The notes beneath the pieces were generated by a model that worked only from the letters and a program-made list of their open reading frames with translations, was not told where the DNA came from and searched no databases. From NCBI RefSeq assembly GCF_040954645.1, contig NC_092813.1, positions 17,710,136 through 17,774,135 on the forward strand: a DNA stretch of 64,000 nucleotides, given 5' to 3'. Shown here piece after piece: positions 6,290 through 24,260 of the stretch. The first letter of the stretch is position 1. Each line of letters opens with the position of its first letter. Source of the DNA: Diabrotica undecimpunctata. Taxonomy: Eukaryota > Arthropoda > Insecta > Coleoptera > Chrysomelidae. A program made the position numbers and the translations under genes.

Positions 6290-8235
6290 TTAAGATAACA
6301 GATTGCTGATGTTAACTGGTAGGCTAATATTGAGATCAATTAAATCTAGATATAGGCTTCGAGTCTGTTCCCTATGATTAGGACAATCGAAAAATAAGTG
6401 GTTCAAATCTCCGACAGATTTACCATCACAAGGACAGAAAGGGGTTTTATAGATTCCAATCCTATGCAGATGCTCTGGAAAGAGGCCATGGTTAAGTTTT
6501 AACCGGGTTATTAACGAAGAATGTACTTTATTATAGTTAAAATTAAAATGGGGAATATTTTTTGGTAAGCATGGATGAATAGAAAAGTAATGGTTTCTTG
6601 AAGTCTTCTGAACCTCTTTATATTTTGACATCCATCTTTCCCTGCCAATACTCCTGATAATAGAAAAAAGATCTTTAAAGTAGTAAAAATTTGTAATTTC
6701 TGATATCTCAGATGTATTTTTTGCCATACCATCCACTAATTCGTTTCCAATTACTCCATTATGTCCTTTAACCCAGAGTAAAGTAACTGTTTTTTTTGTG
6801 AATTTTAGATCATGTAATAATTTTTTGATATCAAGTATAATGGAGTTTTGAAAACTATCCAATGGATGGCTACGAATAGCTTGTAATACTGCCTGAGAAT
6901 CTGATACTATTACGATGTTCTCACAATAATTAGTGACACACCAAGTTAGTGCTTTCTGTATAGCAGCAGCCTCGGCTGTAAAAATAGAACAACATTCAGG
7001 AATATGATATTTCTCAACATAATTGCTGTTTGAAACAAAAAAAGCGAAACCAGTACTTTCAACAGTTTTTGAACCATCTGTATAAATTATTGTTAAATCT
7101 TCCCCTAATTTGCTTAGTATGGATTTGAATATCATATTAGTTAAAATTGGCAAGTCTGAATAAGAGGACATTATAATGGTTGGTTTGTCTATCAGAACTT
7201 CAAAGTCTTGTATGTAAAAAGGAAATTTTGGGAGCTGTAATATATAAGATTGAAATGAATTCGTATCGATAAAAGATTCTGCAAGAGGAGGAGAATTTTT
7301 TATTCTCCAATAAGAATTTGTTAAATTTTCTGTCAAAAGTAAACCTATTTTGTGAACCATAGTTGTATTAAACGATCTGTATGTTATTAGACGTTTGTTG
7401 GCTAACATTTGCCTACGTATGTGTAAAGGTGGTTCCTGGGCTTCTGCTAGAACTGCTTGGTTTGGTGAAGACATCATAGCTCCTAGACAAATTTTTATTG
7501 ATTTAAATTGTATTCTGTCAAGAGTTAATAGATTTGTTTTGCATGTTGAACCGTAAAGAACACAGCCGTAATCCAGAATGGATCGTATGTAGAAACTATA
7601 AAACATTAAAGAGATATTTTGATCTGCACCCCATCTTTTTTTAGAAACGAAACGCAGAAGGTTAATTCCACTTTGTTTTACGTACTTTATATGGCTGGAC
7701 CACAAGAGTTTTTTATCTAGGATCATGCCTAGATACTTATACTCTTCTGCTAAGGGGAAATTATAATCACCTATCTGGCATTTGCCTGTGACTTTTTGTC
7801 TACGTCTAGTGAAACATACAATCGAAGATTTTTCTTGTGATATGCTAAAACCCATTTGTTTCACCCACTTATCTAAGTTACTAAAGCTAAGTTTTAGATT
7901 CAACATACAATCTTCATAGGATTTATGGCTGGTATATAAACATATATCGTCTGCATATTGAATTATTTTGCATTTTTCATCCATCAAACCATGCAGATCT
8001 GCAGTATAAACATTAAATAATAAAGGACTTAGAATTGAGCCTTGTGGGAGACCGTTATATAATATTCTTGGACCGTGTAATACATTTCTATGGTCCCGTA
8101 AGTATATTTTTCTATTCACATACAAATTTATTATATTTACAGATAATCTTTTATCAATACCACACCCCACCATTTTTGAATATAATATATCCAAATCAAC
8201 CACGTCATATGCACCCTTTAAATCTAGAAACAAAC
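6290..8235 (-). pseudogene. Jockey ORF2, 3' part: RT palm, thumb and RNase H
   Basis: This is the C-terminal two thirds of a LINE polyprotein. It starts at FLDLKGAYDVV, the first catalytic aspartate block, then GLPQGSILSP, the active site QYADDICLY, and YKYLGMILDKK of the thumb. An RNase H domain follows: IIYTDGSK, FTAEAAAIQKAL, SDSQAV, and WVKGHNGVIGNELVD, giving the D-E-D-H set. It ends with a cysteine/histidine segment (CPCDGKSVGDLNHLFFDC). The 5' side is cut exactly at the Gypsy insertion; the reading resumes at 14483. Confidence 0.92.
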
Positions 8236-8239
8236 ATAG

Positions 8240-8518
8240 TGTAGCGAGATTAAATAAAACGAGCGGTTCGAATTTATATAAATATATTTATTTATAAGTT
8301 TACAGTTCGGTACTCTCTTATCAACTAAACTACTTCTAACATTGTTACCTATATATACTACAGTTACTACGTTCGAGAATATTCTGGCGTTGTCCCACCT
8401 CTAATTCGCCTACGTGACCGGTTATTCTCTCTCGCACTCGATACGCCGCGAAATTTCGAGAGTATTAGAGATGCAATGCAACCGTTACCTGGGCCATGCC
8501 AAAAGTATGTTCGTAACA
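8240..8518 (-). repeat. Gypsy 3' LTR
   Basis: 279 bp, TG...CA ended, one mismatch to the copy at 14200-14478. On the minus strand it directly follows the polypurine tract. Confidence 0.95.
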
Positions 8519-8531
8519 CTGCTCCCCTCTT
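8519..8531 (-). other. Polypurine tract of Gypsy element
   Basis: On the minus strand AAGAGGGGAGCAG abuts the 3' LTR, as expected for plus-strand DNA priming in LTR elements. The pol stop codon (8530-8532) overlaps it. Confidence 0.75.
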
Positions 8532-10437
8532 AAATCTGATCGTCCCGATCAGCAAGTCTATATGTAGGCACAGCATGGCGGAATCTACAGGACTCTCCAG
8601 CTCTGCATGAACCCTTTAGAAAGAAATAACAGTCTACTGACTTTGAAGGATACGATCTCATCGGGTTAATGCAACACACAGTAATTCGTACGCCGGTGTC
8701 TCGGAAGATCACTTCAAGCATGCTTCTGACAATCTTCCAGTCCAGATTATCTAGTGCATGGCCTATCTTGGGTAAGGCCAAATTCTTGATGTCGTAATTG
8801 CACACAATTTTCTTCAAATTAGTTAGAGCACGCCATACATCCTCGTAGCTTGCCCTGTCTTTATACGACTTCCTGGTCACCATATACAGCAAAGATCGAG
8901 AACCATCTTCTAATCGCAGTACTCTTCCAACTTTAGGTTGCTGGTTTTTTAACTCGTCCAAACGACCGAATTTCTTATAAAATACGGATGAGATTCCGTT
9001 AGTCATCTCAAGATCTTGGGCAACACAGTGGGCTAGAGAGACGTTATGTGGAACACTAAAAAGATCCTGCTGAACTTCTGTGGTCACGCCGAATCTAGCA
9101 CTCTTTCTCTCTGCGTAATTTGACATAAATTCATTAAAGCTTGGTCGCCGGTCATCTTTGATCTCATGTTGAAGGGTTCGTGCTTCTTCTGTTTCATTTG
9201 AGCCAGCATATGGTGCAAGACGATTTATGTGAACTACTTTTGGTTTACCTTTCGGCAACTTCTTAATTCGGAATATTACGTCATTTATTTTCTTTTTAAT
9301 TTCATATGGACCTTCCCATTGTCTTTGCAGTTTGGGAGACAAGCCTCGACGACGTTGTGGATTATAAAGCCAAACAAGATCACCTACTTCATAGCTTTCA
9401 CTCTTACATCGAGAATCATATTGATCTTTCATTCTGTCACTGGCTATCTGGATGTGTTGTCGGGCAAGTTCATGAATGTTGTTCATTCTTAACTTCAGGC
9501 GGTCGACATAATCTTCGCTTGCAACATGTTCTTCGGAAGGTCTGCAGCCAAACTCTAGGTCGCAGGGCAAACGAACTTCACGACCTAACATCAGGCAGGT
9601 TGGAGTCTGGCCTGTAGTTTCATTCACGGCCGAGCGGTAGGCCATTAGGAATAAATGAATATGCTGGTCCCAATCTCTTTGATGTTCTGATACAACCTTG
9701 GATAGGTGTTTACCCATTGTTCGGTTCATTCTCTCGACCATTCCGTCTGATTGAGGATGCAGGGGTGTCGTTCTGGTCTTATTGACACCAATCAATTTAC
9801 AAACGTTTTGGAAAAGGGTTGACTCGAAGTTTCGCCCTTGGTCGGAGTGGATCTCCAAGGGAACACCAAATCGGCTAAAGAATTCTTTAACAAGTACCTC
9901 TGCAACGGTAGCAGCTTCTTGATTTGGTATCGCATAAGCCTCAGTCCATTTCGTAAAATAATCCATGGCTACCAGGATATATTTATTTCCATCATTTGTC
10001 TCTGGAAGTGGACCTGCAATGTCGATTGCTACTCTTTCCATAGGACTACCAACATTGTACTGTCTCATGGGTGCCCTCTTTTTACCAGCTGGACCATTAC
10101 TGGTTGCACACAGTTCACATTTCCGGCACCATCTTCTTACATCATTTTTACAGTTCACCCAATAGAACCGTTCTCGAACCTTTTGCAGAGTCTTCGTGAT
10201 ACCAAAGTGTCCACCTGATGCACCGTCATGCAACTGACGCAATACTTCTGACACTTTACTTTTAGGTACAATTAACTGAAGCTTAGTTTCTGTACCATCA
10301 TCGTTCTCAAAGGTTCTATACAGAAGATCATCTTTCAGCACTAGGCAATTCCATTGGCTCCAGTAACACTTGACTTCTGGACTACATGCACTAATGTCTT
10401 GCCAAGAAGGTCTCTCACTTCGACGCATCCAATCCAA
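8530..10437 (-). CDS. Gypsy integrase fused to macrodomain and CCCH finger
   Basis: 635 residues. Residues about 70-110 form the HHCC zinc domain (H70, H77, C107, C110). The integrase core has D139 (AIDIAGPL), D199 (HSDQGRNF) and E235 (GMVERMNRT); the C-terminal DNA-binding part runs to VVHINRLAPY. Residues about 458-590 are then a macrodomain closest in pattern to TARG1/OARD1 ADP-ribosyl hydrolases: NVSLAHCVAQDL, VFYKKFGRLDELKNQQ, LLYMVTRKS, LALPKIGHALDNLDW. The aspartate matching the TARG1 catalytic Asp is present (D563); the catalytic Lys position reads R522-K523. A CCCH finger follows (C603-x7-C-x5-C-x3-H621). Upstream, the frame was fused to RNase H; a T9 run near 10440 shifts it. Function of the extra domains is inference. 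Confidence 0.88.
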   Translation of the reverse strand: MDWMRRSERPSWQDISACSPEVKCYWSQWNCLVLKDDLLYRTFENDDGTETKLQLIVPKSKVSEVLRQLHDGASGGHFGITKTLQKVRERFYWVNCKNDVRRWCRKCELCATSNGPAGKKRAPMRQYNVGSPMERVAIDIAGPLPETNDGNKYILVAMDYFTKWTEAYAIPNQEAATVAEVLVKEFFSRFGVPLEIHSDQGRNFESTLFQNVCKLIGVNKTRTTPLHPQSDGMVERMNRTMGKHLSKVVSEHQRDWDQHIHLFLMAYRSAVNETTGQTPTCLMLGREVRLPCDLEFGCRPSEEHVASEDYVDRLKLRMNNIHELARQHIQIASDRMKDQYDSRCKSESYEVGDLVWLYNPQRRRGLSPKLQRQWEGPYEIKKKINDVIFRIKKLPKGKPKVVHINRLAPYAGSNETEEARTLQHEIKDDRRPSFNEFMSNYAERKSARFGVTTEVQQDLFSVPHNVSLAHCVAQDLEMTNGISSVFYKKFGRLDELKNQQPKVGRVLRLEDGSRSLLYMVTRKSYKDRASYEDVWRALTNLKKIVCNYDIKNLALPKIGHALDNLDWKIVRSMLEVIFRDTGVRITVCCINPMRSYPSKSVDCYFFLKGSCRAGESCRFRHAVPTYRLADRDDQI

Positions 10438-11296
10438 TATTTTTTTTTATACATGGATCATCTGCTTGAGCGTCTTGTAGCTGTTGAGGCTGCCATTGCT
10501 CATTAATGACGGTGGTTCGTCTCACGGGGCAAAGTTGTTCTTCTAATTTAAGACAGTGATTACAATTTGCACTGCACGGCCGTCTCGAAAGGGCATCAGC
10601 ATTTGAATGAACTCTGCCAGCCCTGTGTTCGATCTCGTAATCATATTCTTGTAATCGTTCTAACCATCTTGCCATCTGACCCTCTGGATTACGAAATTGT
10701 AGGAGCCATTTTAGAGCAGCGTGATCCATGCGAAGAAGAAACTTTCTGCCATACAAGTATTTATGGAAATGCTCACAAGCCTTCACTACGCCTAGCAATT
10801 CTCTTCTGGTAACGCAATAGTTTCTTTCTGGTTTTGACAAGACTTTGCTAAAGTAAGCGATGACTTTCTCCTGCCCATCTTGGATTTGGGAAAGAACAGC
10901 TCCTATTGCACTGTTGCTTGCATCGGTATCCAACACAAATTTTCCTGCCTGTCTAGGGTAGCTTAAAATCGGTGCGCTGATCAGAGCCATTTGTAAGTGT
11001 TCAAAAGCTCTTTGACACTCTTCGCTCCATGTATATTCTTTGCCTTCTTCTGTCAACTTTGTTAATGGCTTGGAGATATTGGCAAATCCTTTGACAAAAC
11101 GGCGGTAATATGTACATAGGCCAAGAAAACTTCTAATTTCGTGTTTATCTCTTGGTACTGGCCAATCCTTAATTGCTGCAAGTTTTTCAGGATCAGCTGT
11201 TACACCATTACTTGCTACAATATGTCCCAAGTACTTCACTTCTCGTCGAAACAAGTGACATTTCTTCGGACTCAACTTCAGATTCGCTGCCCGCAA
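10415..11296 (-). CDS. Gypsy RT C-terminal part and RNase H
   Basis: This is the continuation of the Gypsy pol. It contains LSPKKCHLF and YLGHIVASNG (RT thumb), then RNase H: FVLDTDASNSAIGAVL, the RNYCVTRRELLGVV glutamate block and LLRMDHAALKW. The HRAGRVHSNADALSR motif closes RNase H, followed by a tether. It is in the same frame as the upstream RT ORF, separated only by a TAA (11300-11302) and one codon. It ends in the wrong frame because one extra A (minus strand) sits in the run at 10440-10448. Confidence 0.9.
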   Translation of the reverse strand: MRAANLKLSPKKCHLFRREVKYLGHIVASNGVTADPEKLAAIKDWPVPRDKHEIRSFLGLCTYYRRFVKGFANISKPLTKLTEEGKEYTWSEECQRAFEHLQMALISAPILSYPRQAGKFVLDTDASNSAIGAVLSQIQDGQEKVIAYFSKVLSKPERNYCVTRRELLGVVKACEHFHKYLYGRKFLLRMDHAALKWLLQFRNPEGQMARWLERLQEYDYEIEHRAGRVHSNADALSRRPCSANCNHCLKLEEQLCPVRRTTVINEQWQPQQLQDAQADDPCIKKNIGLDASK

Positions 11297-11299
11297 TCG

Positions 11300-12775
11300 T
11301 TAAAAGACTTCTGTTAGATTATTGGCATGTTCATCGAAGGATCTTTCAACTACAATTACATCATCCAAATAAACCAGGCATGTTTTCCATGTTAGACCTC
11401 TTAAAACTGCATCCATTAATCTTTCAAATGTGGCCGGGGCATTACATAAACCAAAGGGCATAACTGTGAACTGCCAAAGCCCTGATCCTATCGAGAATGC
11501 GGTTTTTTCACGATCAGCTGGCTCCATGTCTACTTGCCAATATCCACTTTTCAGATCGAGTGTGGAGAACCAACGAGAACCAGAAAGTGTATCCAAAGTA
11601 TCGTCTATTCTGGGCAAAGGATAACTATCTTTTTTAGTTACTGCATTGAGCTGTCGGTAGTCAATACAAAAACGTGTTGAACCATCTTTCTTCTTTACTA
11701 GGACTACTGGTGATGTCCATGGACTGTTTGATGGTTCAATTACCCCTTGTTTGTTCATATCTTTGATGATGTCTTCGGCTTCATCTCTTTTCGAAAATGG
11801 AAGTCGTCTAGGTTGTTGTCTGATTGGCTGAGCGTCTCCGGTATTAATTTTATGCTTTACTATGCTTGTTTTGCCATTATCCTTCTTATCCATGGCAAAA
11901 ACATCTTGAAATTCTATCAGCATAGACTTCACTTTTTTAGTTCGTTCATCATCAAGATCTTGGCACGTTTTAATCATCGTCTCAACAAGCTCCTTTGGAT
12001 ACTTAGATTTCGACGGTTTCTCATTAGTATTCATGGAACAAATCAAAGCCACGGGAATACACTGTCCGATCAAAGTTCTTTTACTTAACTTAATAGCAGT
12101 TCCCTTTAAATTCATAACTCTTACAGGAACGACATCTCGAATTCTCACCAAAGCTTTTGCCGTTAGGAACTCAGCATTATTCACATCTTCGACCATCCTT
12201 AAACTTCCCTCTCGGCAGTAACCATCCGGTCTGGTCATCAAAATTTTCTCACTATTACCGGGTATTGTTACGTCACAAGTAGTTATTAAGGTGATAACAT
12301 CTTCTTTGTCTTCATGAAACGGCAACTCTTCACCACTGATCTCGAGAACTCCATCTTTGACATTCAATACAGCCCCAACTTTCCTTAGTAAATCCATCCC
12401 CAATATGAACTCATCGGAGATCTCTGCAATTAATACTGTATGTTTCACTGTGGTCTGGCCAATGGATACTGACATATTAGCCTCGCCATATGTATTAATT
12501 ATCTCACCAGTTGCTGTTCTAAGCTTTACTGTTGCAGGCAATAATTTAAGATGGCCTCGTACTACTTCTGGCCGTGCAATAGTTCTCGTTGCACCTGTAT
12601 CTACCAAAAACGATCTACATTTATTATTGATACGACCCTCTATGTACAAGCTATGAATTCCACCTGAGGACGTAATGTTCACAGTTACTATGGGGGCTGT
12701 GTTTCTCGAGGTCGGCAGTTGCCCCTTGTTGTCGACCCGTTCTAGTTTTCCGACTGTTGTATCATTTTCTTGCAA
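11300..12775 (-). CDS. Gypsy aspartic protease and reverse transcriptase
   Basis: 491 residues. The retropepsin motif FLVDTGATRT is near residue 57, with flap and FILGMDLL further on. RT begins with the QPRRLPFSKR region and shows FCIDYRQLNAVT, FSTLDLKSGYWQ, PFGLCNAPATFERL and the active site VYLDDVIVV near the end. The ORF ends at an in-frame TAA inside the sequence TEVF-stop-RLRAANLK; the usual residue there is Gln, so a CAA-to-TAA change is likely. The start overlaps gag by 34 bases in the -1 frame. Expression could be by frameshift (GGAAAAC just before the gag stop, not a proven slip site) or from its own ATG. Confidence 0.92.
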   Translation of the reverse strand: MQENDTTVGKLERVDNKGQLPTSRNTAPIVTVNITSSGGIHSLYIEGRINNKCRSFLVDTGATRTIARPEVVRGHLKLLPATVKLRTATGEIINTYGEANMSVSIGQTTVKHTVLIAEISDEFILGMDLLRKVGAVLNVKDGVLEISGEELPFHEDKEDVITLITTCDVTIPGNSEKILMTRPDGYCREGSLRMVEDVNNAEFLTAKALVRIRDVVPVRVMNLKGTAIKLSKRTLIGQCIPVALICSMNTNEKPSKSKYPKELVETMIKTCQDLDDERTKKVKSMLIEFQDVFAMDKKDNGKTSIVKHKINTGDAQPIRQQPRRLPFSKRDEAEDIIKDMNKQGVIEPSNSPWTSPVVLVKKKDGSTRFCIDYRQLNAVTKKDSYPLPRIDDTLDTLSGSRWFSTLDLKSGYWQVDMEPADREKTAFSIGSGLWQFTVMPFGLCNAPATFERLMDAVLRGLTWKTCLVYLDDVIVVERSFDEHANNLTEVF

Positions 12776-14040
12776 TTACGGCGAATATGACCTACGTCAC
12801 CGCAATTCCAACATCTGGGCTCGCGTCTCTTCGGCATCGTGTTACGAACTACTTTTCGTACCATTTCTTCCAGACGTTCATCGTTTGGTTCGTCGCCTTC
12901 TTCGATGGTTCTTACTCGATGGCTCCGTGAAGTTTGACTAGCTGTTTCATGTTCCAAGGCAATAGCGAGCGCTTCATCCAGAACTTTTGGTCTTGCTAGT
13001 CGTAAAGCTTTCTGTAATTCACTTTCTTTTAACCCATTGACGAAGGTATCTACAGCAATTTCTTCCAAAATGTTGTCTGGTACCTCCGGATAAGCCAACC
13101 GCACTATACGAGCAACATCTGCTTCAAACTCTTGCAAATTTTCACTTGCTCGTTGAATTCTACTTCTTAGTTGCGCCTTGTAGACTTGTTGTAGATGGGC
13201 ATCTCCGTAACGTTTGTCTAGTCGAGTGAACAAGGTCTGGTAACATTTTTCTTGACCCTTAGGAATCGATCTTAGGATATCTGCAGCATCACCTCGTAAA
13301 GCAGCAGTCAAGGAAACAGCTTTTTCTTGTTCTGTCCAATGATTGGCTGTCGCAATAGCTTCAAATTGTCTAAGGTATATGGACCAAGAAGACTTTCCAT
13401 CAAATGGTGGCAATTTGAATCTCATATTATGTGTCGTTTCGTCTCTGGGTAATTCTTCTTTCACTACCGGATCTAAGGCTATTGTGTTAACTGGTGGTAG
13501 TACTTTTGTGTTAGTTATCATGGTCTCTAATTGCTTGATCTTCTCTTCTACGTCTTCTATCTTGTCGTTTACATTTTTCTGTATTTTATCAAATGTTTTA
13601 GAAACTTCTTCAAATTTTTCATTGTTCTTTTTAGAAGTTTCTTCCATCATTTGAGAAACATTTTCAAATTTCTCGTCGAATCTTCGAGATACATTTTCGA
13701 ATTTTTCATCGAATCTTTTGGAAACGTTCTCTAATTTATCATCATTTTTTTTAGAAGTTTCTTCAATTTTTTTAGAAGTTTCTTCTATCATTTGAGACGT
13801 TTCATCGAATCTTTTGGAAACAGTCTCGAATTTATCATCAGTTTTTTTAGAAGTTTCTTCTATCTTCATTAAAACTGCTTCTTCTGCTGACTGAAAATGG
13901 AATGTCTCTGGGTCATTTCCATTCTTGTTAAGAACAGTTTTTAGTCGTTCTTGGAGTATCTTCTTGGACCCGCTGCAGTCTTCATCGCGTTCTTCCAGTT
14001 GCTCACGCAACTGTTTTACTGAAAGTTGTAATAGCAGCAT
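12742..14040 (-). CDS. Gypsy Gag
   Basis: 432 residues. The N-terminal about 45 residues resemble a SAP-type helix-turn-helix (LSVKQLREQLEERDED). Residues about 55-170 are a long coiled coil made of imperfect repeats of the type ETSKKxDDKFExVSKRFDE. A Gag capsid-like region follows (FDGKSSWSIYLRQFEAIA, LRGDAADILRSIP). A single CCHC knuckle near the end has C410-x2-C-x4-H-x4-C423. The coiled-coil repeat number may vary by slippage. Intact ORF. Confidence 0.92.
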   Translation of the reverse strand: MLLLQLSVKQLREQLEERDEDCSGSKKILQERLKTVLNKNGNDPETFHFQSAEEAVLMKIEETSKKTDDKFETVSKRFDETSQMIEETSKKIEETSKKNDDKLENVSKRFDEKFENVSRRFDEKFENVSQMMEETSKKNNEKFEEVSKTFDKIQKNVNDKIEDVEEKIKQLETMITNTKVLPPVNTIALDPVVKEELPRDETTHNMRFKLPPFDGKSSWSIYLRQFEAIATANHWTEQEKAVSLTAALRGDAADILRSIPKGQEKCYQTLFTRLDKRYGDAHLQQVYKAQLRSRIQRASENLQEFEADVARIVRLAYPEVPDNILEEIAVDTFVNGLKESELQKALRLARPKVLDEALAIALEHETASQTSRSHRVRTIEEGDEPNDERLEEMVRKVVRNTMPKRREPRCWNCGDVGHIRRNCKKMIQQSEN

Positions 14041-14183
14041 CTTTGTTCAGGAACACACGTACTTTTTAAATGTTCTTTCGTACAAAGGACACTACCGAAC
14101 TACGCGGATGTTCCCGATGAACAATACTTTCCAAAGTTCAAAAGTCTTTTTCAAAAGTCACTGCTGAATTTATTTGCAAATCT

Positions 14184-14199
14184 CACACCGGACACCAAC
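14184..14199 (-). other. Candidate primer-binding site of Gypsy element
   Basis: Directly inside the 5' LTR the minus strand reads GTTGGTGTCCGGTG, starting one to two bases from the LTR. Position and the TGG start fit a tRNA primer site. I cannot assign the tRNA without a tRNA 3'-end search. Confidence 0.5.
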
Positions 14200-14478
14200 T
14201 GTAGCGAGATTAAATAAAACGAGCGGTTCGAATTTATATAACTATATTTATTTATAAGTTTACAGTTCGGTACTCTCTTATCAACTAAACTACTTCTAAC
14301 ATTGTTACCTATATATACTACAGTTACTACGTTCGAGAATATTCTGGCGTTGTCCCACCTCTAATTCGCCTACGTGACCGGTTATTCTCTCTCGCACTCG
14401 ATACGCCGCGAAATTTCGAGAGTATTAGAGATGCAATGCAACCGTTACCTGGGCCATGCCAAAAGTATGTTCGTAACA
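14200..14478 (-). repeat. Gypsy 5' LTR
   Basis: 279 bp, matching 8240-8518 except at 14242. It is flanked by the target duplication ATAG (14479-14482). Confidence 0.95.
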
Positions 14479-14482
14479 ATAG

Positions 14483-16224
14483 CATAAATTCGTTTTTTGA
14501 AAAACAGAGTTGAATATCCGTAACTAAATGTATGAGAGCATCAATGGTACCTCGACCTCTACGAAATCCATACTGTGAGTAGGGAAAAACTGAACTACTT
14601 TCAATAAAATGTTCTAATCTAAATTTTATAAGCCTTTCAAAGGATTTTGTCACACATGATAATAGAGAAATGGGTCTATAAGATGATGGAAGTTCTGGGT
14701 TTAAGTTAAATTTGAGTAAAGGGCATATGATAATATTTTTTAAAGTATCGCAATATTCTTGTTTCAACCACCAACTATTAAAGATTTGTAAGAGAACATC
14801 TTTGGCATTTGACGGCAATTTGTCCAATATCTTATAAGTAAAACCGTCCAAACCGGGGGCTGTATTTCTGCTTTTTTTAGTGCGAAATCAAGTTCTGAAG
14901 GAGTAAAAGGTTTTGACATGGAATCTACACTAGTATTAAAACGAAAAAATTCTTTAATCCTACCAACATTACCAGAGGCAGATGAAGGTGCAAGTTGGTC
15001 TAACATCTGTTTAATGAGATTTTCAGAAAGTTGAGGTTTTTTATTGTACTGATAGTTATTGGAAATTGATCTGACGGTTGACCATATTTTTGAAAGAGGT
15101 GTGCTTTTGTTTAGACTATTTAAAAAATTTATCCAACTACTTTTTTTCTTTGTTTTAAATAATCGTCTGGTTTGGGCTGCTATATTTTTATAGTTTATGT
15201 AATTATTATAGTTACTTTGGGTTCGATACGCTTTCAATGCTTCTGATCGTTTTTTTATTATGAATGTACATTCCTCATCCCACCAATAAGGCCTTGGAAT
15301 TGAGGGAGTAAAAGGTTTTTTTATGGGCATAGATTTGGAAGCAGCTAGAGAGATAGTCTGAAAGAGTAGGGCTGTCTTCTCATCGTTAGAAAGATTATTA
15401 GATGATAAAAATGTGGATAATTGTTTGTCTAAATCTGTCTGAAATAGCTTCCAGTCAGCGCGGCAATCGTTCCATTTTGTTGATGGATTAATTAGGAAAG
15501 AAGTAGGATTAATTTTAAGCTCTAGTTTAATAGGAAAATGATCGGATCCCAATGTGTCGGGATATACTGACCAGTTTATACGATTTGTTAATGAGGCTGA
15601 GGTGATAGTCAAATCAACGGCAGAATGATTGCCACTCGCGGCGATTCTAGTAGGTGTTCCGTCATTTAGAGAAACTAATTCGAAAAAATCCATGCTTTCG
15701 ACTAATATTCTACCATTACGGTCATCCGGGATCGGACCCCACATGTAATGGTGGGCATTAAAATCACCACAAAAAACTGTTTTATTATAATCGAATTGTT
15801 CAAATAAATGTATCCAATCAGTCTTTTCTACTCTGATCTCAGATGGTTTATATATAGACACAAAAGATATATTAATTTTGTTAAGTAAGACTGCACACAC
15901 TTCTATTCCGGTATTAAAATTATAGTTAATGTTAATTATTTGATAATCAATACCCTTTAGTATGAAAATGCCTACACCGCCATAGCCACTTTCACGGCAT
16001 TTTGAAACAAAATTATACCCTTTTAATTTAAAGTCTATTTGGTTTTTCAACCAAGTTTCGGATAAAATTATAATATCTACATGAGAATTATTAATATAAT
16101 TTATGAGACTATCCCTATTACTTACTAACGATCTACAATTCCATTGTAAAATATTTAAGGAAGATTGAGTAAGTTGACTGTGCATTTGGAAATTAATAAT
16201 ACGAGTGAATGCTTTCATTGTCAC
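14483..16224 (-). pseudogene. Jockey ORF2, 5' part: endonuclease and N-terminal RT
   Basis: APE endonuclease motifs in order: LNILQWNCRS, LSETWLKNQ, FCGDFNAHHYMWG, SAVDLTITSA and GSDHFPIKLEL, giving the usual N/E/D/H set. A linker rich in W and basic residues follows, then RT block 1 and YRPISLLSCV, YGFRRGRGTIDAL. A one-base deletion in the T7 run at 14872-14878 breaks the frame between FALKKAE and LDGFTYK. The 3' side ends at the Gypsy insertion and resumes at 8235. ORF2 starts at 16224, overlapping ORF1 by 32 bases. Confidence 0.92.
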
Positions 16225-17545
16225 TCGTCGCTAAATTATCCGTTTCTCTGTTATTACCTGTTTCTTCTAAATTATTAGAAATAAGTTTTCTTAATTCATT
16301 TTCTAAATTGCATATAGGTTGAGATTGATTATTGGTATACATAAGTTGATTAATATGAGATGTGACAAGTAATATAAGTTTCTCTTTATAGTCAATAAAT
16401 TCGTCCCTGTAGGGATTGGGTATTATAGGATTAGATTTAGGGGTAGGTCTTTTGATAGAAGTTGACGCAGAGGTATGGGGTAAAATTGGTGGAGAAGTTG
16501 CTTTACGTTTATTATTTGTAGAAGTATGAATAGTTTTCCTTACCGGTTTATTTAATGTGAAATTAGGGACATTGTTAGACGAGGTAGGTAAACTGGGAAA
16601 ATTGGAAGTGTTATTTAGAATAGAAAATCTATTATTAGTTATTATTTTTGCGTAACTTGGATTGTTATGTAATTGTTCTGCTTCTCTGAATGTTATATTT
16701 TCTGATGCCATTATTGCTTTGATTTTCTTCTGTTTTTCGTATATTGGACATTTTCTAGACAACGAGGTGTGATCGTTGGTTTTACAATATATGCAATGAT
16801 TATTTTCATTACGAGTTTCTACAGTATGGGTGGTGTCTGTACATTTTTTACATCTACTGTCCTTAGATTTACATTGTTTTGAGGAGTGACCATATCTGAG
16901 ACATTTATAGCATTGCACTACCGGGTGTATGTATGGATCTACTGAAAAGTTGCATAAATTAATTATTATGTTTTGTGGAACCTCGTTTCCCAAAAATTCT
17001 ACAATTATCATTTGTCTTGGTACTAATTGAGTTGTGCCATCGTTGTTCGTTACTTTTCGTTGCATCCTTTGAACATTTACCACTTGTCTCTCGGATATTA
17101 TCGCATCCTTTAAATAATTCTCCGAAAAGAAAGTATCAACCATACGGACTATGCCCTTTCTATGTGTATAAAATTTTGGAATATAAGCTATAAGATCATT
17201 TTTATTTATTAAATCATGATTAATTATTTTATTTGCTATAGAATAAGTTTTAAAAATGACTTTTACCCTATTAATGCCAACTGTTTTTATATCAAGTACA
17301 TCATTTTTAATGGACGAATCATTTAACAAAAAATGTCCTACCTTCATTGGAAATAACCTACCGATATTTTTATTTTTGTGTTCAATATATACAAAGAATG
17401 GGGCCTTATCGCTGGGTTTATACCGGTTTTCAAAATCAATTAAAGTATTTACAGACCTGTTATCATCAATATTAGTTTTTTCAGACGTGTTTACGGAATG
17501 TAATTCATCGGGCGGTCTATGACCTCCAATAGCATCTTCTTCCAT
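16193..17545 (-). CDS. Jockey ORF1, gag-like protein
   Basis: 450 residues, intact. An N-terminal domain (about 45-170) includes FFVYIEHKNKNIGRLFP and NRVKVIFKTY, the RRM-like part of Jockey ORF1. Three zinc knuckles follow (CYKCLRYGHSSKQC, CKKCTDTTHTVET, CIYCKTNDHTSLSRKC). The C-terminal third is S/N/P-rich and low complexity. It probably binds element RNA. The same N-terminal fold appears in the orphan fragment at 52560-52840. Confidence 0.9.
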   Translation of the reverse strand: MEEDAIGGHRPPDELHSVNTSEKTNIDDNRSVNTLIDFENRYKPSDKAPFFVYIEHKNKNIGRLFPMKVGHFLLNDSSIKNDVLDIKTVGINRVKVIFKTYSIANKIINHDLINKNDLIAYIPKFYTHRKGIVRMVDTFFSENYLKDAIISERQVVNVQRMQRKVTNNDGTTQLVPRQMIIVEFLGNEVPQNIIINLCNFSVDPYIHPVVQCYKCLRYGHSSKQCKSKDSRCKKCTDTTHTVETRNENNHCIYCKTNDHTSLSRKCPIYEKQKKIKAIMASENITFREAEQLHNNPSYAKIITNNRFSILNNTSNFPSLPTSSNNVPNFTLNKPVRKTIHTSTNNKRKATSPPILPHTSASTSIKRPTPKSNPIIPNPYRDEFIDYKEKLILLVTSHINQLMYTNNQSQPICNLENELRKLISNNLEETGNNRETDNLATSDNESIHSYY

Positions 17546-17693
17546 ACTTAGATTTTTTGGAATACCAAATTATGGGCCTAATTTGCACTAAACAAATTCA
17601 CAAAATAACACAATAGCGATCACTATCAAACTCGCACCGACAGCAATATCAAAACAAACCGTTCTCTACGGCTATCGACTCGGGTATCTGATT
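17546..17693 (-). other. Jockey 5' UTR
   Basis: Short noncoding leader between the right-hand target duplication and the ORF1 start. Jockey elements carry an internal promoter here; I do not see a defined core element. Confidence 0.5.
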
Positions 17694-19411: not shown

Positions 19412-20958
19412 ATGTCTCAAGGAAAGAAAGGTACAAGAAGCAAAAAGAATGAAGAAGATGTGGAAGTAGAAACACAACCTATACAAGAGGAGAGTTTAGT
19501 TCAAGTTCCACAAGATACTACAGAAATGAATCCAGAAAGAGAGGAAAATGTCAATATGGCAGCTTTGATGTCATTAATGATGCAGATGAACAAGACAATG
19601 GAAGAGAATACGAAAAAAATAGAACAAAAAATGGAACAGAATTTAAAAGAAGTCAAAGAAGACATAAAAAAATGGAACAGAAATTGGAAGAGAATCATAG
19701 AAAATTAGAAAAGAAAATAGAAGATAATAATAATAAAATTGTAAAACAAATGGAAAAACAAATGAAAAAAAAACTTGAAGCTGCAGAGAAAAAAGTAGCA
19801 AATGAAATAAAAAGTATACGGAATGACTACAAGAAAAGGATAGACAATGAGAGGACAGAAGTAAAGAGGATTATTCAAGATAATAAGATAGATATAGAAC
19901 AGAAAATAGAGTTACAGAAATGTAACTTAGAAGTAAAAATTAACGAAGACAGGAGAAACACAGAAGAAAAATTAGACGATATACAACAAAATATCCAAAT
20001 AAATAGTAATCAAATAAGAAATGTGGAACAGAGAATAGATGATATTTCACAAATGAGAGACATAGGGAGACCTTACTTAAATTTAACAAATGAGACTGGG
20101 ATTAAATTCTCTGGTAATATAAAAAATTTGCATCCTAGAGTATACATAAATAGTTTAAAACATAAATTAAGATTTGTGAATAATATTAATGATATTAAAA
20201 ATTATATTAGAATGACATTAAATGACAATGCAGCAACTTGGTTTGCTAGTATTGAGAATGATTTAGATAATTTTCAAACATTTGAAAATAAATTTTTAAA
20301 TTATTATTGGGGTGAACTAGAGCAAGCCAAGTTTAGAGAAATTCTATATTTTGGAAAGTATAATCAAAATTTAAAATCAAATATGGTAGATTATGCATTG
20401 AAATTGATAACAGTTGCAAAATATTTAGAACCACCACTTAGAGAGGATAAAACAGTCTTAAATGTATCTAGACATTTTGATGCTGATGTTGTGCAAACCG
20501 TAACTGTACAAAATATTCAAACAATAGATAGTTGTGTTAATTTTATTCAAAGAATACAAAGAGGCAATATGACAAGTAATAATAACAACAAAAAAAACAA
20601 TAATAACTTTCAATATAATAAAAATGATAATCAACAATATAGACAATCATATAATAATTATAGATATGGTAATAATTTACAAAATTTTAATAATAATAAC
20701 AGTAATTATAATAGACAACATTTTAATAACAGTACTAATAATAATAGACAAGATTTTAATAATCGAAGAAATACAGAGCGACCTAACTATAACAGACAGG
20801 TAAATTGTGTACAAAGGAATAGGAGCTGCGAAGACAGGGAACGAAATAGTACAAGGCAAGAAAATGTGAGTAGAAGTCATAGTAGGGAAAGACATAGGAC
20901 ATCAGATCCAAGTGGTCAGATACAATCTGACAATTCTAATAATCAAAATTTTGTGTAG
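19412..20958 (+). pseudogene. Gag of second Gypsy-type element
   Basis: Starts MSQGKKGTRSKK. A strongly charged coiled coil (KMEQNLKEV and similar repeats) fills about the first 220 residues. A capsid-like region follows (TGIKFSGNIKNLHPRVYINSLK, ATWFASIENDLDNF split here only for description). The tail is extremely Asn/Arg rich with no CCHC knuckle in the Gag frame. The frame shifts at the A7 run 19666-19672 (DIKK then MEQK), one base short. Everything else is open to the stop at 20956-20958. Confidence 0.85.
20946..20952 (+). promoter_or_regulatory. Candidate -1 ribosomal frameshift site (A AAT TTT)
   Basis: The canonical X XXY YYZ heptamer AAATTTT lies in the Gag frame, two codons before the Gag stop. 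The pol frame is exactly -1 and is open from before this point. I did not find a clear pseudoknot just downstream. Confidence 0.65.
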
Positions 20959-22742
20959 TAAACTTTCTGAATTACAAGTTAGGCCATTGCTATTATGAAA
21001 AACCTTCTGAATTTATTTCTTTAGATGAAGAGAAAATTATTGAATCTATTAATTTAATTTATATAAATGCTTTGGCCAAAAATAAAATGATTAAAATTAT
21101 GATAGATACTGGTTCAGAAAGTACTTTAGTCTCGGAGAATTTTATTTTTAATACATTAAAACTATCAGATATAATAAAGATTCCAAAAATTAAAATTATT
21201 GGTGCAAATAATAAGAAGTTGGGTGAAATTGATAGACTAGCCAATTTTAAAATTAATATTCTTAAGAAAGAAATTAATATGCAAGGATTTATTGTCAAGG
21301 ATTTATGTGTTGATATATTAATGGGAAATGATGAATTGGAAAAGAAGAAAGTAAAGATAGATTTTGAAGAAAAAATGGTAACTTTGGAAGGGCAAATAAT
21401 TAAATTTATGCAGAAAGATGAGGTGGAAGAAGGAATAAGAGTTGATAGGATATTATTAAAAGAAAATAGTGATGTTTATGAAGAAGAAATGTATTTTGAT
21501 GATAGGGAAATGTCCCAAAAGAATGTAAAGAATAATTATTGTAGTGAATATTTAAGGAATGGAAATTTTAAGCAGATGGATGCCTACGAGGCGGAGTGCG
21601 TAAAATTGGAAGCAAGGAATAATGAGTACATAATGAAGAATAATTTTATTTGTAAAGAAGAAGATATAATGAAAGTTTTAAATTGCCCTGAAGAATATAA
21701 ATCAATAGTCATTTCCATATTGCAGCAACACAAGGGACTTGTCAATAAAGAAAATAGAATTGCACAAAATTATATCCATAGTATAAAAGTTAAAGAAGAA
21801 AAAGATTTTAAAACAAAATCATACCCAATACCATATAAATACAGAGAAGAAGTAAACAAAACAATTAATAATATGTTAGAAGATGGGATCATTGAGAAGG
21901 CAGACACACGTTTTATTAACCCCATAGTAGTAGTACGAAAAAGATCAGGTGAAATCAGGTTATGTTTGGATGCAAGGAATATTAACAAGATTACTGAAAA
22001 GCAATTTGAAGCACCAATGAGTATAGATGGAATATTAGGAAGAATTACAGGAATGTCATTTTTCACTAAAATCGATTTACAGCATAGTTTCTGGTTAATA
22101 CCTCTAGAAAGAAAAAGTAGACAGTATACAGGATTTCAGATAGATGGAGTAGTATATCAATTCAAAGTAGTACCATTTGGACTTCAATCATCTTGCAGTG
22201 CTCTATGTAGATGTCTTCATGATATTTTGGATCAATATGAACATTTTGTAATTCACTACATTGATGATATCTTAATTTTTTCTAAAACGGCTGAAGATCA
22301 TGAGAAACACCTAAAAATTATAATAAATAGATTAGACAAAGTTGGACTAAAAATAAATCAAGAAAAATGTACATTTTTTCAAAAAGAAGTAATATATTTA
22401 GGTTATAAACTTAATACTAAGGGAATCGAAATGGATCCAGAACGGACACAAATCATTCAGGAATATAAAACACCACACAATTTAAGAACTTTAAGAGGAT
22501 TTATTGGAATAATTAATTATTATAAAAGGATGATACCAGATCTAAGTATAAAAGAAATTCCATTACTTGAACTACTGAGAAAAGGTGTAAAATGGAGATG
22601 GGATCAGAGAAGAGAACTAGCATTCCAAGAAATTAAAAACATTTTTCTGTCAAATTTAAAAATATATTATCCTGACTACACACAGCCATTCATATTAAGA
22701 ACAGATGCATCCATAGAGAGATTATCAGGGGTATTATTATAA
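20953..22742 (+). CDS. Pol, first part: protease and RT
   Basis: The pol frame is open from the slip site, with a short cysteine/histidine segment (CVVNFLNYKLGHCYY) and no need for an ATG; the first Met (21072) is inside. Protease: MIDTGSESTLVS and VDILMGNDEL. RT: RLCLDARNINKITE, FTKIDLQHSFWLIP, PFGLQSSCSALC, and active site HYIDDILIFSK. RNase H begins with LRTDASIERLSGVLL, then a TAA (22740-22742) stops the frame; the downstream ORF is in the same frame, so this is one nonsense change. Confidence 0.88.
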
Positions 22743-24260
22743 ATACATGATTGGGTCGAATACCCAATACAATTCATTTCAAGAATCACAAAGCCACATG
22801 AAAAGGGTTACTCAGTTTCAGAATTAGAACTAGCAAGTATAATACACTGTGTCACAAAATTAAGATTTTATTTGTTGGGTAATGAATTTACAATAGAAAC
22901 AGATCACCAAGCTTTAACGTCTATATTAAATAACAAATATGGAAACAGTAGAATACATCGGTGGAGTCTAATACTTAGTGAATACTGCTTTGAAATCAAA
23001 TACATTTCTGGAAAATCCAATATAGTGGCAGATGCTTTATCAAGGTTAGAAAATACACCACAAAAAGGGCAGCGAACAATAAAAATTGGATTAAATCAAT
23101 TAGTAGAAAGTACTGGATTATATTCTAAAGAAGAAATTATAAGAGATCAGATCAATTTGAGTGGAAAACAAAAAGTCCTTAAGAAAGATGGAGTTTATTA
23201 TAAAATAATAAATGGCATAGAAGTATATGTAATAACTAGAACTTTAGCAAAGAAAATATTGAAAAATTTACATAACAATTATATGCATATTGGTTCAAGA
23301 AAGCTATGGATGCTATTTAGGGACAATTATTTTGCAAAGAATGACATAAGTATAGCAAAAGAAATTACTACCCAATGCCCAATATGTCAACTAAACAAAG
23401 AAAAGAATTTCAAAAACCAGAACACATATAAATCTAATGTTGTATATAAAAAACTAAATACAGTTTCCATGGATTTTATTTCAAATTTAGTTCTCAGTCC
23501 AACAGGAAAAAAGCATATACTAGTGATAGTTGATTTATATACAAAATTTATTAAACTATATCCCTGCTCCAGAACAAATGTTAAAACATTAAAATTATAT
23601 ATTAATCAATTTTTCGAAGAAAGAGGACCATTTAGAAATTGCATAATAGATAATGCTACATATTTTAACAACCAAAAATTTCGGACATTTTGTGAGAAAA
23701 AGGGAATCAACATTCATTTTACAAGTATCAGACATCCTCAGGCAAATCCTGCAGAAAGATATATTAAAGAAGTTATAAAATATTTAAGGATACTGTGCCA
23801 AAATCAACACGAAACTTGGCAGCAACATATACCACAAGTAGAGTATTTTTTAAATAATACACATAATTTGAATACAGAAGAAGTACCAGAATATTTATTG
23901 TTTGGCCATATAGGAAACAGAAAGTGGATTAGTGAATATAATCAGGATATGTTAGAACAAGTAATGCAGAAAGTGAATAACCGAATTAGGAGGAAAGCTG
24001 AAAAATATATCAGAAGACAAAATCGAAATATAAAAAAACCAATCACATTTCAAAAAGGAGACCTAGTGTTAATTCGTTCACTTAGAAAAAGTAATGTTAA
24101 AGAAAATCGTTGTAAAAAATTACAACCAATGTTTGAAGGTCCATACATAATTGAAAATCAGAATGGACTAAATAGTTATGTGTTAATAGATGCAGAGAAC
24201 AGACTAAGAGGCATGTTTCATATCAACGACATTTTTCAATATCATGAAGAGATTGAATAA
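22743..24260 (+). pseudogene. Pol, second part: RNase H and integrase
   Basis: Reads on in the same frame after the TAA: LELASIIHCVTKLRF, TIETDHQALTS and ISGKSNIVADALSRLE complete RNase H. Integrase follows with the zinc domain (H..H and CPICQLNK), core Asp in SMDFISNLV, Asp in IIDNATYFNN and Glu in NPAERYIKEV. The C-terminal domain includes GPYIIENQNG and ends at a normal stop. It has no extra C-terminal domain, unlike the other Gypsy in the window. Confidence 0.85.

What the first reader, a model, noticed from the sequence alone, without database searches (positions are those of the whole stretch)
8530..9070. Gypsy pol with an in-frame TARG1/OARD1-like macrodomain and a CCCH zinc finger
After the integrase C-terminal domain, with no stop, the ORF runs on into about 130 residues that match macrodomain motifs of the TARG1/OARD1 type (NVSLAHCVAQDL, KKFGRLDELKNQQ, PKIGHALDNLDW) and then a perfect C-x7-C-x5-C-x3-H finger. 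The pol stop overlaps the polypurine tract, so the extension fills the whole 3' end where other elements carry env or nothing. TARG1-type domains remove ADP-ribose from proteins; PARP enzymes act in antiviral and anti-transposon defence, so a captured host hydrolase could help the element. I do not know a described element with this set. The catalytic Asp is kept (D563); the Lys position reads Arg-Lys.
Basis: partly seen in the sequence, partly recalled or inferred. Interest (0 to 1): 0.88.

Follow-up and report, generated by a model that had tools for sequence, protein, structure and literature searches.

The report
Retrotransposon integrase with captured macrodomain
An abundant, recently active jumping gene carries, fused to the end of its integration enzyme, a protein domain taken from an animal ADP-ribose enzyme plus a zinc finger; the domain keeps its shape but has lost key catalytic residues, which suggests it was turned to a new job.

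Summary
The window has a 6,239-bp Ty3/Gypsy element (minus strand 8240-14478) with 279-bp LTRs differing at one base and a CTAT duplication, inside a Jockey-like LINE. Its last pol frame runs from integrase into a TARG1/OARD1 macrodomain (39% identity; PDB E 4e-28) and a C-x7-C-x5-C-x3-H finger, ending at the polypurine tract. It is no chance fusion: all 150 matches scored (of 6193 candidates) cover the whole extension at 96-100% identity. A second family, 42-45% identical, has the same architecture in 12 of 12 loci picked by integrase domain. Both macrodomains form one clade within animal TARG1, so one capture is likely. The hydrolase reading is not supported: family A has Arg for catalytic Lys84 and Ala for Gly123 in 41 of 41 copies; family B keeps the Lys but lost Asp125. 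Yet the fold is kept under constraint. Best reading: a repurposed, probably non-catalytic integrase C-terminal module for chromatin or nucleic-acid tethering, analogous to a chromodomain. That function is inferred. No paper describing such an element appeared in eight library searches.

The parts
8240..14478 (-). Complete Ty3/Gypsy LTR retrotransposon, 6239 bp, nested in a Jockey-like LINE
   Evidence: LTR pair and empty-site reading of the LINE ORF
14200..14478 (-). 5' LTR, 279 bp, TGTTACG...GCTACA
   Evidence: 278 of 279 bases equal to the 3' LTR
8240..8518 (-). 3' LTR, 279 bp
8236..8239 (-). target-site duplication CTAT, 3' copy
14479..14482 (-). target-site duplication CTAT, 5' copy
14181..14197 (-). 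candidate primer-binding site TGGTGTCCGG..., tRNA not identified
   Evidence: read directly; not tested against tRNAs
12742..14040 (-). gag (Retrotrans_gag, zf-CCHC; SAP-like N-terminus just under the Pfam cut-off)
11300..12775 (-). pol: aspartyl protease and reverse transcriptase, overlaps gag in another frame; ends at an in-frame TAA 11300-11302
10415..11296 (-). pol: end of RT and RNase H; frame changes at an A-run near 10418-10446
8530..10446 (-). pol: integrase, linker, macrodomain, CCCH finger in one open frame
10096..10269 (-). integrase H2C2 zinc-binding domain
   Evidence: Pfam PF17921, E 3.2e-21
9754..10044 (-). integrase core; D139 and D199 inside, E235 just after it
   Evidence: Pfam PF00665; residues
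9211..9312 (-). integrase C-terminal GPY/F (p58_C) domain
   Evidence: Pfam PF22938
9088..9207 (-). linker between integrase and macrodomain; pN/pS above 1 among family-A copies
8668..9087 (-). TARG1/OARD1-type macrodomain, catalytic site degenerate
8872..8874 (-). R522, at the position of TARG1 catalytic Lys84
8749..8751 (-). D563, at the position of TARG1 catalytic Asp125
8575..8631 (-). CCCH zinc finger C603-C611-C617-H621, most like CPSF4 fingers
   Evidence: Pfam PF00642 22.6 bits over 20.5; CPSF4 E 3.5e-6
8519..8531 (-). polypurine tract AAGAGGGGAGCAG overlapped by the pol stop TAA (8530-8532)

Best explanation
A Ty3/Gypsy lineage captured, probably once, an animal TARG1-type macrodomain, gained a CCCH finger, and carries both fused in frame to the integrase C-terminus. 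The macrodomain has since lost the TARG1 catalytic set and serves as a folded, probably non-catalytic module. With the finger it most likely helps integrase, or the released C-terminal Pol piece, hold chromatin or nucleic acid, in the position where chromoviruses carry a chromodomain. Shown: the fusion, fold (by model), copy spread, two families, one clade, and constraint on the macrodomain. Inferred: loss of hydrolase activity, and the tethering role. Unknown: whether protease separates the module from integrase.
For: All 150 scored genomic matches (window included; 6193 candidates) cover residues 1-202 of the extension at 96-100% identity, with a stop listed in 2 of 150. All 40 fetched copies end at the same TAA and are open through the extension; one has a stop, in integrase. 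LTR pairs were measured in 9 of 10 copies: 5 identical, 4 at 98.2-98.8%, so recently active. Family B: 12 of 12 loci fetched for their integrase C-terminal domain carry macrodomain and CCCH; 10 of 12 are uninterrupted. One A copy against one B copy: macrodomain 43% amino-acid identity over 135 codons with pS 0.85 and pN 0.37. Within-family macrodomain pN/pS is 0.23 for A and 0.18 for B. Zinc ligands 41 of 41 in A. Element macrodomains form one clade (100/95) inside a clade with human OARD1, the host gene and L010 (100/98). Fold modelled alike in both: TM to TARG1 0.97 and 0.92. Active-site losses.
Against: No functional data. CCCH-tail pN/pS is 1.27 in family A, with few variants, and 0.50 in B with shared variants 3.5 synonymous to 8.5 not, so constraint there rests on invariant ligands and survival in both families. 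The macrodomain shared-variant test in A is weak (9 synonymous to 8 not, p 0.038). A copies were chosen by similarity to the extension and, by me, mostly from rows with long open frames; B loci were also mostly long-frame rows; both choices lower pN and stops. K84R and the loop changes were not assayed. Target preference could come from integrase alone. The finger's confidence in the models is low. Pfam Macro does not list family B at E up to 1.
Confidence: 0.5

Rival explanations
1. Counter-defence enzyme: the macrodomain removes ADP-ribose put on element proteins, RNA or cDNA by host PARPs.
For: Clear TARG1 ancestry; Asp125 kept in family A in 40 of 41 copies. Drosophila parp-1 mutants mis-express several mobile elements, Gypsy-type ones among them, mostly upward (PMC7712786, passages). 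Predicted proteins of insect-associated RNA viruses hold macro folds like this model (listing).
Against: Lys84 is Arg in 41 of 41 and Gly123 is Ala in 41 of 41 of family A; family B lacks Asp125 and the GxG loop. By contrast Lys84 is kept in 60 of 63 and Gly123 in 62 of 63 relatives from viral contigs. The published active-site pattern fails in both families (PMC6397177, section 5 read).
Confidence: 0.12
2. ADP-ribose reader: catalysis is lost but binding is kept, drawing integration complexes to PARP-active chromatin or DNA breaks.
For: Adenosine-site residues D20, L21, P118 kept in both families and F22 in A; model near identical to TARG1 bound to ADP-ribose.
Against: The pyrophosphate loop GxG is altered in A and shortened in B, and loop 1 is altered in both.
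Confidence: 0.2
3. Separate accessory protein: protease frees macro-CCCH from integrase and it acts on element RNA (packaging, stability or translation).
For: Fast-evolving linker between integrase and macrodomain in family A; CCCH fingers most like the RNA-processing protein CPSF4 by sequence.
Against: No cleavage site identified; the in-frame position is equally expected for a lasting fusion. Linker pN/pS is below 1 in family B (0.44).
Confidence: 0.2
4. Passenger: captured sequence without function that rides along until it decays.
For: Active-site loss; weak site-count test in family A; CCCH-tail variants show little constraint.
Against: Two families 42-45% identical keep fold, finger and frame; macrodomain pN/pS 0.18 in family B, sampled by integrase; a decayed relic shows the fusion is old.
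Confidence: 0.06

Closest known systems
TARG1/OARD1 (C6orf130) macrodomain enzymes
   Same: Modelled fold (TM 0.97 A, 0.92 B), 39% identity, one clade with animal TARG1
   Different: Fused to integrase; Lys84, Gly123 and loop 1 changed in A; His32, Cys33, Asp125 and loop 3 lost in B; CCCH finger added
Chromoviruses (Ty3/Gypsy with an integrase C-terminal chromodomain)
   Same: Ty3/Gypsy element with an extra domain after the integrase C-terminal region (hallmark in the PMC3605345 abstract, seen in the search listing)
   Different: No chromodomain among Pfam hits; the added module is macro plus CCCH
412/mdg1-like Gypsy elements
   Same: GPY/F integrase C-terminus (Integrase_p58_C), 4-bp duplication, no env between pol and LTR; the likeness to mdg1/412 is recalled
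   Different: Macro-CCCH extension; strong ATAT target preference, a property that PMC5408687 (passages) calls exclusive to errantiviruses and their two-ORF derivatives in Drosophila. Clade not tested by an RT tree
DarG antitoxin and phage TARG1-like macrodomains
   Same: Related macrodomain (NF048014 E 4e-8, far below its cut-off; 63 relatives from viral contigs)
   Different: Mostly keep the catalytic residues; outside the animal clade in the trees, except L010; fusion partners of these 63 not examined
Kadipiro virus VP8 predicted structure
   Same: Best viral fold match, 36% identity
   Different: Reovirus-type RNA virus of mosquitoes (recalled), other partner domains; seen in the listing only

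Membership tests
Ty3/Gypsy LTR retrotransposon | paired LTRs and target duplication | tested here: met
   279-bp LTRs, 1 mismatch, TSD CTAT
Ty3/Gypsy LTR retrotransposon | gag, then PR-RT-RNaseH-IN order in pol | tested here: met
   Pfam domains in order
Ty3/Gypsy LTR retrotransposon | primer-binding site for a tRNA | tested here: inconclusive
   TGGTGTCCGG after the 5' LTR; tRNA not identified
Errantivirus | env gene after pol | tested here: not met
   pol stop abuts the PPT
Chromovirus | chromodomain at integrase C-terminus | tested here: not met
   no chromodomain among Pfam hits up to E 1
TARG1/OARD1 family | TARG1-type macro fold and sequence homology | tested here: met
   fold by model only
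TARG1/OARD1 family | catalytic Lys84 | tested here: not met
   Arg in 41 of 41 family-A copies; Lys present in family B
TARG1/OARD1 family | catalytic Asp125 | tested here: inconclusive
   kept in 40 of 41 of A; lost in B
TARG1/OARD1 family | published pattern TKx(30,35)Px[IL]GxGxD | tested here: not met
   window reads TR...PKIGHALD; family B reads TK...KL(E/K)CRQLD; pattern from PMC6397177
TARG1/OARD1 family | ADP-ribosyl hydrolase activity | not testable with these tools
   needs an assay
CCCH zinc finger | C-x(7-8)-C-x5-C-x3-H | tested here: met
   PF00642 over cut-off in A (window) and B (L206); ligands 41 of 41 in A

The most novel reading that the evidence does not exclude
A captured, catalytically disabled TARG1 macrodomain plus CCCH finger forms a new class of integrase targeting module: it reads ADP-ribose or nucleic-acid marks and steers insertion, and it may underlie the strong ATAT target preference seen in this GPY/F-type lineage.
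Probability: 0.2. Interest if true: 0.87.

Novelty: new variant of a known kind. Interest (0 to 1): 0.74.

Why it matters
It shows a retrotransposon lineage that took an ADP-ribose enzyme domain from an animal gene, fused it to integrase, and kept the fold while dismantling the active site in different ways in two multi-copy families. If the module steers integration, it would be a second route to chromatin targeting beside the chromodomain, and a natural experiment in turning a macrodomain hydrolase into a binding module. It also ties ADP-ribose biology to transposon biology in a testable way.

Tried and rejected
Chance fusion: rejected by genomic copies and a second family. Capture from phage: rejected by the trees (midpoint-rooted, and warns that long branches meet at the DarG-like rows). 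Neighbouring Lys as substitute nucleophile: position 85 is Lys in 28 and Arg in 13 of 41 copies, so not conserved. The extension alone found no relative in viral contigs, nor did the integrase; the two genome-contig scans found none. Relatives came through alignments that included OARD1 or viral-contig rows. The protein database was off, so other insects could not be checked, and the clade of the element was not tested by an RT tree. Family-A copies picked by integrase could not be fetched.

Rows dropped: of the 63 relatives, six (L006, L049, L055, L066, L073, L081) were left out of alignment A4, one (L006) out of the tree, and 29 out of the tree (34 used). In the target-site count 5 of 37 loci were dropped: 2 without a found LTR end and 3 with broken ends. 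One of 10 LTR pairs could not be compared because no 5' LTR was found. Of the 150 rows, 30 loci were fetched and looked at.

Full report
What is there. The window copy is a full LTR element on the minus strand, 8240-14478. LTRs 14200-14478 and 8240-8518 are 279 bp each with one mismatch, flanked by CTAT. Joining the two flanks gives one open LINE reading frame, so the limits are exact. gag (12742-14040) has Retrotrans_gag and a CCHC knuckle; pol has protease, RT, RNase H and integrase. In this copy pol has an in-frame stop (11300-11302) and a frame change at an A-run (about 10418-10446). The last frame, 8530-10446, is open through integrase, linker, macrodomain and CCCH, and its TAA overlaps the polypurine tract.

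The domains. Pfam's Macro model is weak here (E 0.11), but human TARG1/OARD1 is hit at E 4.4e-28 with 39% identity. An AlphaFold model made with 57 relatives from viral contigs (55 TARG1-like, two DarG-like) gives pLDDT block means above 90 across the macrodomain; TARG1 4j5s is the best PDB fold, TM 0.97 by target length, rmsd 0.8 A. The finger passes the zf-CCCH cut-off and is most like CPSF4 fingers by sequence; it is low-confidence in the model.

Not chance. The window lies in a 1.74-Gb assembly of 2867 contigs, the largest 209 Mb. Of 16 contig ends fetched, 6 carry TTAGG arrays, as in many insects (recalled). A search with the extension listed 6193 candidates and scored 150, the window among them; all 150 match over its whole length at 96-100% identity, 2 with a stop; 40 of the 150 sit in open frames of 1413-1414 aa (recount). 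A search with an integrase piece alone scored 150 of 7885 candidates; 59 of 150 have the 1413-1414 frame, a length that fits pol with the extension, though those extensions could not be fetched. I fetched 40 copies, mostly from rows with long frames: all keep the extension open and end at TAA; one has a stop in integrase. LTR pairs could be compared in 9 of 10 such copies: 5 identical, 4 at 98.2-98.8%; in 8 of the 9 only about 166 bp of LTR aligned to the window LTR.

A second family. A search with Integrase_p58_C (150 scored of 6630) led to 12 loci that I picked for varied frame lengths and scores, mostly long frames. All 12 carry a macrodomain and CCCH after integrase, 42-45% identical to the window; 10 of 12 are uninterrupted, L213 has a stop and L214 a frame change. 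The L206 macrodomain hits TARG1 (E 7.3e-23) and models as TARG1 (TM 0.92), though Pfam Macro does not list it. A decayed relic (L183) holds integrase pieces (54-59%) and a macrodomain-CCCH end (52%), so the fusion is old. I found no related Gypsy family without the module, but did not sample for one beyond these loci.

Origin. A search with human OARD1 (150 scored of 4796) had as its best hit L153: a 683-aa frame with 50% identity to OARD1 and the intact pattern TKKK...PTLGCGLD. The 29 other loci fetched were element copies; the other 120 rows were not fetched. I read L153 as the host's own TARG1-type gene. In trees, family-A macrodomains join L153 (97/82); A and B together form one clade (100/95) within a clade holding human, L153 and L010 (100/98), with the exact link to L153 unsure (92/16). 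This fits one capture from an animal TARG1 gene. The L153 frame shows no CCCH finger in Pfam at E up to 1, so the finger may have come separately.

Active site. Against TARG1 residues listed in PMC6397177 (section 5 read): in family A, 41 of 41 copies have Arg at Lys84, Ala at Gly123 and Thr at Gly41; Ser35 is Ala in 40 of 41, as in L153; Asp125 is kept in 40 of 41. In family B, Lys84 is kept but His32, Cys33 and Asp125 are lost and loop 3 is two residues shorter (L206; the same motifs read in the other loci where the frame holds). Among 63 distinct relatives from viral contigs, Lys84 is kept in 60, Gly123 in 62, Gly41 in 59. K84A TARG1 cannot rescue cells from DarT (PMC8501950, passages). So neither family keeps the TARG1 catalytic set, and they lost it in different ways.

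Selection. Family A pairwise pN/pS over 41 copies: integrase 0.073, macrodomain 0.231, linker 1.6, CCCH tail 1.27. Variants shared by two or more copies: integrase 34 synonymous to 4 not; macrodomain 9 to 8 (p 0.038); CCCH tail 0 to 3. These copies were chosen by similarity to the extension and mostly for long frames, which biases macrodomain pN down. Family B, 12 loci sampled by integrase: macrodomain 0.179, integrase C-terminal domain 0.212, linker 0.443, CCCH tail 0.496. Between one A copy (L110) and one B copy (L206) the macrodomain is 43% identical with pS 0.85 and pN 0.37, much like the integrase C-terminal domain (49%, 0.90, 0.32). The fold is under constraint; support for the finger is its invariant ligands in A and its survival in both families.

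Target sites. In 32 family-A loci with clean LTR ends, the four bases after the 3' LTR are ATAT in 21, ATAC 4, CTAT 3, CTAG 1, others 3, against 1.6% ATAT in the window (p 3e-30). Only the 3' side was read, save for the window and one more copy, where both sides agree. Eight of the 32 lie in AT microsatellites. No flank resembled another (E 1e-8, simple repeats masked), so these look like separate insertions. Family B, with LTR ends judged from where copies stop aligning: ATAT in 3 of 12, other ATA in 3 of 12. A review calls sequence-specific, palindromic targets exclusive to errantiviruses and their two-ORF derivatives in Drosophila, and GPY/F-bearing 412 and blastopia non-specific (PMC5408687, passages). 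This lineage has GPY and no env, so the preference is notable; it may be due to integrase alone.

Mechanism. The most likely reading is a repurposed, non-catalytic module extending integrase, like a chromodomain in place and perhaps in role. The steps from module to tethering are inference. Hydrolase, reader, cleaved accessory protein and passenger are rivals. In Drosophila, PARP-1 loss changes expression of Gypsy-type elements among others, mostly upward (PMC7712786, passages), so ADP-ribose links are plausible but not shown here.

Novelty. Library searches showed no paper on a macrodomain in an LTR retrotransposon among the rows listed; they cover open-licence papers only, several matched far more papers than were listed, and I saw listings, not full texts. 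Repbase was not searchable.

Noticed in passing
6290-8233 and 14330-17569 (-): Jockey-like LINE (endonuclease, RT, RNase H) split by the element; its ORF2 reads straight through the empty site.
   Followed up: yes
12742-14040 (-): Gag N-terminus resembles a SAP DNA-binding domain (23.7 bits against a cut-off of 23.9) and has a repeated coiled stretch.
   Followed up: no
L166, L155, L173, L182: Deletion derivatives (4 of the 29 element loci L154-L182 compared) lack about 170-185 integrase residues, including the second Asp and the Glu, yet keep macro-CCCH in frame; 16 of 150 rows share a 921-aa frame.
   Followed up: partly
rows with frames of about 1780-1870 aa: Some copies may have gag and pol in one open frame, unlike the window copy (7 of 150 rows and 16 of 150 have such lengths); sequences not checked.
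   Followed up: no
L154-L182, L089-L096: Strong ATAT target preference, often in AT microsatellites, in a lineage with a GPY/F integrase.
   Followed up: partly
L153 1024-3075 (-): Likely host TARG1-type gene with a long charged N-terminus and a C-terminal region of unknown kind.
   Followed up: partly
L010 512-1030 (+): TARG1 with 48% identity to human in a 79-kb IMG/VR contig; groups with human in the trees, so perhaps a eukaryotic virus or host DNA.
   Followed up: no
19453-24257 (+): Another Gypsy-type element with RT and integrase in consecutive frames.
   Followed up: no
L184-L203: In 9 of 10 family-A copies the first 112 bp of the LTR (U3) do not align to the window LTR, so the family has at least two U3 types.
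   Followed up: no
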